Origin: Solirubrobacterales bacterium
GTDB taxonomy: Bacteria > Actinomycetota > Thermoleophilia > Solirubrobacterales > 70-9
Assembly: GCA_018883025.1 (NCBI GenBank)
Contig: VEQW01000005.1
Location: forward strand, 1-34,657
Direction: 5' to 3'
Length of the DNA stretch: 34,657 nucleotides
Part shown: piece by piece, positions 16,527 through 23,270 of the stretch
How the letters are laid out: every line of letters starts with the position of its first letter
Numbering within the stretch: the first letter of the stretch is position 1
Made by a program: the position numbers and the translations under genes
Notes under the pieces: generated by a model
The model's database searches: none
What the model was told of the DNA's origin: nothing
What the model saw: only the letters and a program-made list of their open reading frames with translations

Positions 16527-17756
16527 CTAGTCGGTCGAGCCCGAGAGGCTCTCGGCCCGGTCCGTCTTCTCCCAGGTGAAGTCCTCACCGTCCCGGCCGA
16601 AGTGGCCGTACGCGGCGGTCTGGCGATAGATCGGCCGGTTCAGGTCGAGGTAGTCCCTGAAGGCAGCCGGTCGAAGGTCGAACTCGGAAGTGACCAGCTC
16701 GGCGATCTCGCGGTCCGGGATCCTTCCGGTACCGAAGGTGTCGACCATCACCGATACGGGTCGGGCGACGCCGATCGCATAGGCGACCTGGACCTCACAC
16801 CTCCGGGCCAGCCCGGAAGCGACGACGTTCTTCGCCGCGTAGCGAGCTGCGTAGGCGGCTGAGCGATCGACCTTCGAGGGGTCCTTGCCGGAGAAGGCTC
16901 CCCCACCGTGGCGGGCTGCACCTCCGTAGGTGTCGACGATGATCTTGCGTCCGGTGAGCCCGGCGTCCCCGACGGGACCCCCGATCACGAAGGACCCGGT
17001 CGGGTTGACCAGGAGCGACTCGTAGAGAGCATCGCGATCGGCCATCTCGCCGAATCCGGTGTCGAGTACCGGTACGACGACCGATTCCCATATGTCGGGG
17101 CGGATCCGTGTCTCGAGGTCGACGTCGGGGTCGTGCTGGGTCGAGACGAGGATCCGCTCGATCGCGACCGGCTCGCCGTCCCGATACCTGATCGTCACCT
17201 GGGTCTTGCCGTCCGGCCGCAGGTAGTCGACCGCCCCCTCCTTGCGCGCCTCGGCCAACCTCTCGGCAAGGCGGTGGGCGAGCAGGATCGGGAGCGGCAT
17301 CAGGGCGTCCGTCTCGGCGGTCGCGTAGCCGAACATCATTCCCTGGTCCCCCGCACCGGCGGAGTCGTACTCCTCATCCGAGCCGCCGGCCCGGATCTCG
17401 AGGCCGGCATCGACCCCCTGGGCGATCTCCGGTGACTGCTCGTCCATCGAGACCAGGACTGCGATCGAATCGGCCGAATACCGCAGGTCGCCATCGTCGT
17501 AGCCGATCGATGAAACCGTGTCCCTGACTATCGAGGGGATATCGATCGTCGCCGAGGTCGAAAGCTCCCCGGAAACGACGGCCATGCCCGTGTTGACCAG
17601 GGTCTCGCAGGCCACCCGGGCCCCGGGATCCTGCTCGAGGCAGGCGTCGAGGACGGCGTCGGAAATCTGATCGGCCATCTTGTCCGGATGGCCCTCGGTA
17701 ACCGATTCCGAAGTGAACAGGTGCTCGCCTTCGGCGAGGGGTGAGGGATCGCTCAT
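16527..17756 (-). CDS. metK: S-adenosylmethionine synthetase
   Basis: [73 protein letters not shown] 7 nt before the ATG. Confidence 0.97.
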
Positions 17757-17788
17757 CGTGGTTCCTCCGTGGCAGTGGCTTCGATCAC
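17753..17788 (-). other. Candidate leaderless micro-ORF ([11 protein letters not shown]) overlapping the metK start
   Basis: GTG ATC GAA GCC ACT GCC ACG GAG GAA CCA CGA TGA; stop/start overlap ATGA with metK; TAGGGT 8 nt before the GTG; codons 7-9 form the metK SD. Confidence 0.4.
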
Positions 17789-17796
17789 GGTCGTCA

Positions 17797-17802
17797 ACCC
17801 TA
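17797..17802 (-). promoter_or_regulatory. Candidate -10 (TAGGGT) for metK or its micro-ORF leader
   Basis: Minus strand TAGGGT-TGACGACC-GTG. Confidence 0.4.
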
Positions 17803-17816
17803 TTCGGATCGCCCGG

Positions 17817-19121
17817 TCACGGCTTTCGCCCCGCGAAGTCGATGATCAGCGGGACCCCGTCGAGGCCCCACTCCTCGCGCATCCGGTTCTCGAGGTGGTA
17901 GGACCACTCCCGGGAGACCAGTTTTCGGTCGTTCACCTTGATCGAGAACCGGGGTGGCGATTCGCCGACCTGTGCCCCGTAGAGCAGATTGAGGCGGCGA
18001 CCCCTCTTCGAGGGGGGCGGGGTCGTCGAGGCGACCTCGGCGATGAAGCGGTTGAGTTCGGGGGTCGGGACCCTGACTGCCGCCCGGTCTGCGAGCCCGA
18101 TCGCCCGGACGAGGAGGCCATCGACGTTCCTGCCGGTCTTCGCCGAGCAGGTGACCACTTCGGGCCTGAGCCTCAGCTTCCGGGCGACCCGTGCCCGGGC
18201 GTCATCGATATCGGTTTCGGTCTCGTCCCATTTGTTGAGCACTACGAGGGTCGCGCACCCGGCCTTCATCGCCTTCTCCCCGATCCTCAGGTCATCCGAC
18301 CGGACTCCCTCGGTCGCATCGCAGACCAGCAGGGCGACATCGGCGCGCTCGATCGCCAGGTCGGTCCTCATCTGTGCGTACTCGCCGACCGTGCCGGCAA
18401 TCCGCGACCTCTTCCGCAGCCCGGCCGTGTCGACCAGGAGCACCGGGCGGCCATCGACCTCCACCTCAGTGTCGATCGAGTCCCTGGTGGTCCCGGCCTC
18501 GTCCGAGACGATCACCCGTTCGGTCCCGAGCAGACGGTTGACGAGCGACGACTTGCCGACGTTCGGCCTGCCGACGACGGCAACCCGGACGGAGTCCGAT
18601 TCCCCGGGGGTGACCGGGGATTCCCCGAGCAGTCCGGTCACCCGATCGAGCAGGTCGCCGGTGCCGAGTCCATGGGTCGCCGAGACGGGGAGCGGATCAC
18701 CCAGCCCGAGTCCGTGGAACTCGGCCGTGGCGGGCTCGGCGGCAGGGGTATCCAGTTTGTTGACGGCGAGTACGACCGGGTAACCACCCTGCTGGAGCCT
18801 CCTGGCCAGGTCGAGCTCCCCGGAGCGGATCCCGGCACCACCGTCGACGACCATCAGGACCAGATCGGCGTCGTCGAGGGCCATCCCGGCCTGCCTCCGG
18901 ACCTCGGCCGACAGTTCGGAGCGGTCGGAGGAATCGATGCCCCCGGTATCGAGGAGGTCGAAGGCGATCCCGTTCCATTCACACGGGACCAGCTTCCTGT
19001 CCCGGGTCACCCCGGCCTCGTCGTGGACCACGGCCTCGCGTCCGCCAGCCAGACGATTGACGAGGGTGCTCTTGCCGACGTTCGGAAACCCGACGACGGC
19101 GACTGTGGGCCGACCGGACAT
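17817..19121 (-). CDS. der: Ribosome biogenesis GTPase Der (EngA), two G domains
   Basis: VAVVGFPNVGKSTLVNRLAG and VAVVGRPNVGKSSLVNRLLG, two DT(G/A)G, NKLD and NKWD, C-terminal KH-like domain. Start MSGRPTVAVVG at 19121. Confidence 0.96.
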   Translation of the reverse strand: MSGRPTVAVVGFPNVGKSTLVNRLAGGREAVVHDEAGVTRDRKLVPCEWNGIAFDLLDTGGIDSSDRSELSAEVRRQAGMALDDADLVLMVVDGGAGIRSGELDLARRLQQGGYPVVLAVNKLDTPAAEPATAEFHGLGLGDPLPVSATHGLGTGDLLDRVTGLLGESPVTPGESDSVRVAVVGRPNVGKSSLVNRLLGTERVIVSDEAGTTRDSIDTEVEVDGRPVLLVDTAGLRKRSRIAGTVGEYAQMRTDLAIERADVALLVCDATEGVRSDDLRIGEKAMKAGCATLVVLNKWDETETDIDDARARVARKLRLRPEVVTCSAKTGRNVDGLLVRAIGLADRAAVRVPTPELNRFIAEVASTTPPPSKRGRRLNLLYGAQVGESPPRFSIKVNDRKLVSREWSYHLENRMREEWGLDGVPLIIDFAGRKP

Positions 19122-19128
19122 CAGGCGC

Positions 19129-19767
19129 TCAGGTGATTCCGCGCTCGGCCGCCAGTCCCGCGATGCGCTCGACGACCTCGTCGATTCCGAGCTCCGAGGT
19201 ATCGAGTTCGACTGCATCGGGGGCGACTTCGAGCCTGCCGTGCTCGCGGGAGGAGTCGCGCTCGTCCCTCTGATCGATCGATCGCCGAACCGATTCGGCC
19301 TCCTCCCCGGCCTCAAGAGCCCTCCGCTCGGCCCGTACCTCCGGAGAGGCCGTCAGGAATACCTTGAGCGGCGAGTCGGGGCTGACCACCGTGCCGATGT
19401 CCCTTCCCTCGGCCACGTATCGGCCGGTATCGATCAACTCCCGTTGGGCCTGGACCATCACCTGTCGGACCTCCGGGTGGATCGAAACTCGTGAAGCTGC
19501 CTCCGTGACCCGTTCGGTGCGGATCTCCCCGGAGACGTCGATCCCGTCGAGGAGCACCGGACCCGGTCCGGGCACGATCTCGAGCGTCTCGGCCAGCTCG
19601 CCGGTCAGGGTTGCATCCTCCGGGTCGAGGCCCCGTTCGAGACAGGCGAGGGCGACGCACCGATACATCGCCCCCGAGTCGAGGTAGGTGAAGTCGAGGC
19701 GCTCGGCGAGCGCCTTCGCGACCGAGGACTTGCCGGCCCCGGCCGGTCCATCGATCGCGATCACCAT
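19129..19767 (-). CDS. cmk: Cytidylate kinase
   Basis: MVIAIDGPAGAGKSSVAKALAERLDFTYLDSGAMYRCVAL; YVAEGRDIGTVVSPDSPLKVFLTAS. Confidence 0.96.
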   Translation of the reverse strand: MVIAIDGPAGAGKSSVAKALAERLDFTYLDSGAMYRCVALACLERGLDPEDATLTGELAETLEIVPGPGPVLLDGIDVSGEIRTERVTEAASRVSIHPEVRQVMVQAQRELIDTGRYVAEGRDIGTVVSPDSPLKVFLTASPEVRAERRALEAGEEAESVRRSIDQRDERDSSREHGRLEVAPDAVELDTSELGIDEVVERIAGLAAERGIT

Positions 19768-19796
19768 CTCGGTGCTCCCCGGTCGGTCGAAGTCAT
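19761..19796 (-). other. Candidate leaderless micro-ORF (MTSTDRGAPRW*) overlapping the cmk start
   Basis: ATG ACT TCG ACC GAC CGG GGA GCA CCG AGA TGG TGA; TAGAGT 7 nt before the ATG; stop overlaps the first codons of cmk (ATGGTGA); contains GGGGAG, the likely cmk SD. Confidence 0.42.
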
Positions 19797-19803
19797 CGCG
19801 GGC

Positions 19804-19809
19804 ACTCTA
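19804..19809 (-). promoter_or_regulatory. Candidate -10 (TAGAGT) for the cmk micro-ORF/cmk
   Basis: Minus strand TAGAGT-GCCCGCG-ATG. Confidence 0.4.
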
Positions 19810-23234: not shown

Positions 23235-23251
23235 TTGAGTGGTTCCTTCAT
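23231..23251 (-). other. Possible micro-ORF (MKEPLK*) overlapping the aroF start
   Basis: ATG AAG GAA CCA CTC AAA TGA with ATGA overlap; carries the aroF SD (GAAGGA). Very short; weakest of three similar cases. Confidence 0.2.
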
Positions 23252-23264
23252 CCGTCTTACGGAA

Positions 23265-23270
23265 ACTCTA
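23265..23270 (-). promoter_or_regulatory. Candidate -10 (TAGAGT) upstream of aroF
   Basis: TGGCCG-N17-TAGAGT on the minus strand; -35 is poor. Confidence 0.35.

What the first reader, a model, noticed from the sequence alone, without database searches (positions are those of the whole stretch)
17753..17802. Leaderless 11-codon micro-ORF whose stop overlaps the metK start codon
Seen: on the minus strand, TAGGGT-TGACGACC-GTG ATC GAA GCC ACT GCC ACG GAG GAA CCA CGA TGA. The TGA overlaps the metK ATG as ATGA, and codons 7-9 (ACG GAG GAA) form the metK SD. Inference: transcription starts at or next to the GTG, a ribosome starts leaderless on [11 protein letters not shown], and termination delivers it to metK. 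This would couple SAM synthetase output to leaderless initiation. The cmk leader has the same 36-nt length. Leaderless micro-ORFs are established in mycobacteria, but I know of none described at metK in this lineage. Limit: short open frames are easy to get in GC-rich DNA, so the weight lies in the -10/start phasing plus the stop/start overlap.
Basis: partly seen in the sequence, partly recalled or inferred. Interest (0 to 1): 0.72.

Follow-up and report, generated by a model that had tools for sequence, protein, structure and literature searches.

The report
Tiny leaderless ORFs before metK, cmk
The 11-codon reading frame in front of metK is really there but is private to this species and its closest relative and is probably incidental, whereas a sibling mini-frame in front of the neighbouring gene cmk is kept in all 16 genomes of the genus that could be checked and looks like a genuine device for loading ribosomes onto that gene.

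Summary
The metK observation is confirmed base for base: minus strand TAGGGT (17802-17797), 8 nt, GTG at 17788, 11 codons, TGA sharing ATGA with metK. The lineage truly uses leaderless starts: TAnnnT+6-8+RTG is about threefold over background. But at metK the micro-ORF occurs only in this genome and a 99% sister; the nearest outgroup (G016) and 14 other congeners lack it. The ATGA overlap is free: 13 of 15 congeneric metK genes without a micro-ORF also start ATGA. Here metK has the strongest Shine-Dalgarno of those compared.

The same idea holds 2 kb upstream, at cmk. All 16 congeneric genomes with cmk carry a 7-14-codon mini-ORF starting 6-10 nt after a -10 box (degenerate in one) and stopping 7-10 nt into cmk. 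All starts lie at -(3k+2). Five scattered genomes supply the stop with a rare ATA codon, where relatives use ATC. Most cmk starts, often UUG/GUG, lack a clear Shine-Dalgarno. Outside the genus, cmk itself is usually leaderless. The kind is known (mycobacterial coupled leaderless small ORFs); this is a new, unusually well-conserved member. No transcript or ribosome data exist.

The parts
17817..17819 (-). der stop codon (TGA); 60-nt der-metK gap follows
17797..17802 (-). -10-like box TAGGGT of the metK promoter
   Evidence: TAnnnT box just after the der stop recurs in relatives (TAAGGT, TAGGCT, TAGGAT); genome-wide TAnnnT+6-8+RTG excess. No TSS data.
17753..17788 (-). metK micro-[17 protein letters not shown] start 8 nt after the box, TGA overlapping metK ATG
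   Evidence: present only in G000 and sister G014
17763..17768 (-). metK Shine-Dalgarno GGAGGA, duplex -9.5 kcal/mol, strongest of the metK set
16527..17756 (-). metK, S-adenosylmethionine synthetase, 409 aa
   Evidence: high-identity relatives across bacteria
19804..19809 (-). -10-like box TAGAGT before the cmk mini-ORF
19761..19796 (-). cmk mini-ORF MTSTDRGAPRW*, ATG 7 nt after the box, TGA ending 7 nt into cmk (ATGGTGA); conserved in the genus
   Evidence: 16 of 16 congeneric cmk loci; frame, indels and stop conserved
19129..19767 (-). cmk, cytidylate kinase, 212 aa
23235..23270 (-). aroF (DAHP synthase) -10 box TAGAGT (23270-23265) and leader, used as a negative control: promoter conserved, no conserved mini-ORF

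Best explanation
In this Solirubrobacterales genus many transcripts start at or next to the first codon. The metK gene of the window has its own promoter in the der-metK gap and is translated mainly from a strong Shine-Dalgarno; the GTG micro-ORF near the predicted 5' end is a lineage-private, probably incidental frame that may be translated a little. At cmk, 2 kb upstream, the same layout is under selection: the leaderless start of the ancestral cmk has been taken over by a 7-14-codon mini-ORF, a ribosome loads on the mRNA 5' end at the mini-ORF ATG, terminates 7-10 nt inside cmk, and reinitiates at the cmk start just behind. Shown: sequences, frames, conservation pattern, lack of a clear SD at most cmk starts. 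Inferred: the TSS, the translation of the mini-ORF, the reinitiation.
For: metK: micro-ORF in G000/G014 only, absent in G016 and 14 other congeners; SD -9.5 kcal/mol; ATGA present in 13 of 15 congeneric metK genes without a micro-ORF; three other single-genome mini-ORFs of the same layout (aroF, ubiE/menG-like, SDR) are likewise not conserved, so a lone match is weak evidence. cmk: 16 of 16 genomes keep an RTG 6-10 nt after the box (G011 with a degenerate box CATCGT), open to a stop 7 or 10 nt into cmk; starts at -17, -20, -26, -29, -38 are all 3k+2, so all indels are multiples of three; the mini-ORF start column (A9 G1, T10, G10) is better kept than the first base of the cmk start codon itself (A6 T3 G1). 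The stop is made by GTG-A, GTA-A or GTC-ATA-G: all 5 congeners with GTC use ATA, against 1 of 13 outside (Fisher p 0.0007, not corrected for relatedness), and in G001, G009 and G011 that ATA is the only one among 43-57 Ile codons of cmk+der+metK. cmk starts are TTG/GTG in 7 of 16 against 5 of 55 outside. Outside the genus none of 55 cmk loci has the mini-ORF, and 44 have a -10 box 6-10 nt before the cmk start itself.
Against: No TSS, Ribo-seq or reporter data. Spacing from box to mini-ORF start at cmk is 7-10 nt in the clear cases, longer than the modal 6-7, so a 1-3-nt leader is possible. A 'GG' at -11/-10 of cmk is conserved in the 17-nt leaders and could act as a weak SD. In the window's own cmk a moderate SD (-7.1) exists too. 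The genomes are mostly metagenome assemblies, and related genomes are not independent.
Confidence: 0.72

Rival explanations
1. One reading: the metK micro-ORF is a functional leaderless loader that couples MetK synthesis to leaderless initiation in this species.
For: Box-to-GTG spacing 8 is within the enriched zone; ATGA overlap; same gene cluster holds the conserved cmk example; present in both sister genomes with one substitution.
Against: Not in any other congener; strong SD makes it unnecessary; ATGA overlap is free; sister genomes are too close to show constraint; the comparable E. coli rhaB 5'-uORF with ATGA overlap had no knock-out effect (PMC4965119).
Confidence: 0.15
2. cmk is translated by ordinary initiation at its own start (weak GG-type SD), and the upstream ATG is a relic of the ancestral leaderless start with no role.
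For: Conserved GG at -11/-10 in the 17-nt leaders; SD -7.1 in G000/G014 and -6.6 in G011.
Against: Multiple-of-three indels, retained frame and repeated use of three different stop-making codon combinations are not expected for a relic; most leaders have SD energies close to random sequence and some starts are TTG.
Confidence: 0.12
3. The cmk mini-ORF is fused to cmk by a -1 frameshift at its last codon, giving a longer Cmk.
For: The mini-ORF frame always meets cmk in the same register, TGG then stop.
Against: No slippery heptamer seen, peptide not conserved, and stops appear actively maintained.
Confidence: 0.04
4. The mini-ORFs are leader peptides that sense an amino acid or a metabolite (attenuation), or the metK spacer is part of a SAM riboswitch.
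For: Position before metK invites a SAM-related idea; cysteine-type leaderless uORFs exist in mycobacteria (PMC4633059).
Against: No Rfam match in the window; no Met-rich or conserved peptide; the leader at cmk is only 17-38 nt.
Confidence: 0.04

Closest known systems
Coupled leaderless small ORFs of mycobacteria (Shell et al. 2015, PMC4633059)
   Different: There coupling is through RTGA and is backed by TSS mapping and ribosome profiling. At cmk here the stop ends 7-10 nt inside the gene, in another lineage (Solirubrobacterales), with conservation over 16 genomes and no transcript data. metK has the RTGA but no conservation.
5'-terminal uAUG mRNAs of E. coli with a downstream SD-led gene (PMC4965119)
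   Same: 5'-terminal start codon on an mRNA that also has an SD-led cistron, as at metK; E. coli cmk and rhaB (ATGA overlap) are on that list.
   Different: In E. coli the cmk and rhaB uORFs were poorly translated and knocking out their start had little effect. The cmk mini-ORFs here overlap cmk, are conserved, and mostly lack a clear SD.
Termination-reinitiation at overlapping gene pairs (PMC6728339; review PMC12548453)
   Same: Stop next to start, ribosome delivered by the upstream frame.
   Different: Here the upstream frame is a mini-ORF that appears to serve only delivery.
TA-led leaderless genes of Actinobacteria (PMC3160421)
   Same: TAnnnT box about 12 bp before the first codon.
   Different: In this genus the leaderless codon at cmk belongs to a mini-ORF rather than to the gene.

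Membership tests
Coupled leaderless small ORF (Shell 2015), metK micro-ORF | RTG at the transcript 5' end | not testable with these tools
   No TSS data; proxy spacing 8 is 1.8 times background
Coupled leaderless small ORF (Shell 2015), metK micro-ORF | 5-50 codons, RTGA overlap with downstream start | tested here: met
   11 codons, ATGA; but the overlap is free
Coupled leaderless small ORF (Shell 2015), metK micro-ORF | Coupled architecture conserved in relatives | tested here: not met
   Only G000 and G014; absent in 15 other congeners
Coupled leaderless small ORF (Shell 2015), cmk mini-ORF | RTG at the transcript 5' end | not testable with these tools
   TAnnnT box 7-10 nt upstream in 15 of 16 genomes, degenerate in G011
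Coupled leaderless small ORF (Shell 2015), cmk mini-ORF | RTGA overlap | tested here: not met
   Stop ends 7 or 10 nt into cmk, the 'overlapping' class of that paper
Coupled leaderless small ORF (Shell 2015), cmk mini-ORF | Architecture conserved, peptide not | tested here: met
   16 of 16 congeners, peptide divergent
E. coli-type 5'-uAUG on an SD-led mRNA, metK | 5'-terminal start codon plus SD-led gene | tested here: inconclusive
   SD strong; 5' end unmapped; codon is GTG, not ATG
SAM riboswitch before metK | Match to a SAM riboswitch family | tested here: not met
   No Rfam family at gathering score in the window; gap only 60 nt

The most novel reading that the evidence does not exclude
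A whole genus has replaced the leaderless start of an essential gene (cmk) by an obligatory leaderless mini-ORF that does nothing but deliver ribosomes, with selection on synonymous codons inside cmk (rare ATA, GTA) to keep the mini-ORF stop; metK in the window's species is a young, second instance of the same conversion.
Probability: 0.3. Interest if true: 0.62.

Novelty: new member of a known kind. Interest (0 to 1): 0.4.

Why it matters
Coupled leaderless small ORFs have been argued mainly from mycobacterial data and from pairs of genomes. The cmk case gives a many-genome record of selection on such a frame (frame-keeping indels, stop kept by different synonymous solutions), in a different actinobacterial class, and a clear before/after contrast, since relatives have a directly leaderless cmk. 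That makes ribosome delivery by a 5'-terminal mini-ORF testable by evolution and by simple reporters. The metK case shows how easily a single-genome micro-ORF can mislead.

Tried and rejected
The genome-contig scan gave few close relatives and served only to place the lineage in Solirubrobacterales. Rfam and tRNA scans were empty. The RTGA overlap was tested as a signal and rejected: similar share at control spacings. Other mini-ORF candidates from the scan were checked for conservation and rejected: aroF, ubiE/menG-like and an SDR gene. Stop/start mini-ORFs at spacing 6-8 number 9 against about 3.2 expected from spacings 11-40, a real but small genome-wide excess.

Full report
Observation. 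The metK micro-ORF is in the sequence exactly as described. On the minus strand the der stop is at 17819-17817, then TAGGGT at 17802-17797, eight bases, GTG at 17788, eleven codons, and a TGA at 17755-17753 that shares ATGA with the metK start at 17756. The spacer also holds GGAGGA at 17768-17763.

Is leaderless initiation plausible here? Yes. In 1.2 Mb sampled from four genomes of the genus and one outgroup, ATG or GTG follows a TAnnnT box at 6, 7 and 8 nt 4.0, 3.3 and 1.8 times as often as at spacings 11-40, and many of these are starts of long genes. At spacing 8, the metK value, about half of the matches are expected by chance. For a leader like this one, a shuffled sequence gives an open frame running from such an RTG into ATGA in 1.2-2.1% of cases. 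Given many genes per genome this is not rare.

Comparison at metK. metK was found in 46 of 50 family genomes, and the upstream DNA was read in most. In genera g9 and g11 metK is mostly directly leaderless (for example CTCTAGGCTTCCGCCATG). In the window's genus g1 most metK genes carry a longer 5' UTR with AAGGAGA, and two (G015, G017) look leaderless. The micro-ORF is in the window genome and its 99% sister G014 only. The nearest outgroup, G016, has TAAGGT, GACGCGTC and then GCA where the start would be. The ATGA overlap is present in 13 of 15 g1 metK genes that have no micro-ORF, because the second codon is usually Thr, Ser or Asn. The SD in front of the window's metK has the best duplex energy of the set, -9.5 kcal/mol. 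The micro-ORF is therefore best read as incidental, possibly translated at a low level.

The neighbour that does behave as proposed. In the same cluster (aroF, tyrA-like, aroA, cmk, der, metK), cmk has TAGAGT at 19809-19804, seven bases, then ATG at 19796 and MTSTDRGAPRW*, whose TGA ends seven bases into cmk. All 16 g1 genomes with a cmk match have such a mini-ORF; in G011 the box is degenerate (CATCGT, 6 nt, GTG, VRFLRSSRSWS*; sequence, frame read by hand). Mini-ORF starts lie at -17 (ten genomes), -20, -26 (two), -29 (two) and -38, all of the form 3k+2, so every length change is a multiple of three. On a tree of cmk, der and metK these lengths and the stop types are scattered. The stop in the mini-ORF frame comes from cmk codons 2-3: GTG-AT(C/T), GTA-ATC or GTC-ATA-G. 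All five genomes with GTC use ATA, which in G001, G009 and G011 is the only ATA among 43-57 isoleucine codons of three genes. Outside the genus 12 of 13 GTC-Ile cases use ATC and have no stop (Fisher p 0.0007, not corrected for relatedness). With each genome's own codon usage the mean chance of a stop is 0.39, so even five or six independent lineages keeping it has p of 0.009-0.004; treating all 16 as independent would overstate this. The cmk start is TTG or GTG in 7 of 16, and most of these leaders have SD energies near those of random sequence.

Outside the genus none of 55 cmk loci of the order has the mini-ORF. In 44 a TAnnnT box lies 6-10 nt before the cmk start itself, so cmk is probably leaderless there (counts read from those outputs). 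The mini-ORF thus replaced a leaderless start in this genus.

Controls. A conserved promoter is not enough: aroF has a TAGAGT-like box in the g1 genomes but a short SD leader and no conserved mini-ORF. Two further mini-ORFs found by the scan, before a ubiE/menG-like gene and an SDR gene, are private to one genome; the SDR one is missing even in the sister genome. So single-genome mini-ORFs of this layout, which is what metK has, are usually not conserved.

Mechanism. For cmk: a 70S ribosome loads at the 5'-terminal AUG, reads 7-14 codons, stops 7-10 nt inside cmk and reinitiates at the cmk start lying just behind. This is inferred from position, frame, missing SD and selection on the stop. It works like the coupled leaderless small ORFs of mycobacteria (PMC4633059), though the overlap is longer than RTGA. 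In E. coli, 5'-terminal uAUGs on SD-led mRNAs can be translated; knocking them out changes the gene below in some cases and not in others (PMC4965119). By coincidence or not, E. coli cmk is on that list too.

Limits. No transcript 5' ends, ribosome profiles or reporters. Spacing at cmk reaches 10 nt, so a very short leader is possible. Start codons are inferred from homology. A literature search found no report of leaderless coupling at cmk or metK in this class, but the library holds only open-licence papers.

Noticed in passing
   Followed up: yes
metK loci L002-L047: metK switches initiation mode: directly leaderless in genera g9 and g11, SD-led with a longer UTR in most of genus g1, leaderless again in G015 and G017.
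   Followed up: partly
L010, L015, L016: Larger gaps between der and metK (about 764, 776 and 257 nt) in G001, G005 and G003, apparently an inserted gene or segment at the der-metK junction.
   Followed up: no
L165:3232-3267 and L194:13435-13467: Further single-genome leaderless mini-ORFs with stop at a gene start (SDR gene in G000, an uncharacterised gene in G016); the SDR one is not conserved in the sister genome, the other was not checked.
   Followed up: partly
window 23235-23270 minus, and loci: aroF promoter box TAGAGT/TAAAGT with an AAAGG-type leader is strongly conserved across the genus.
   Followed up: partly
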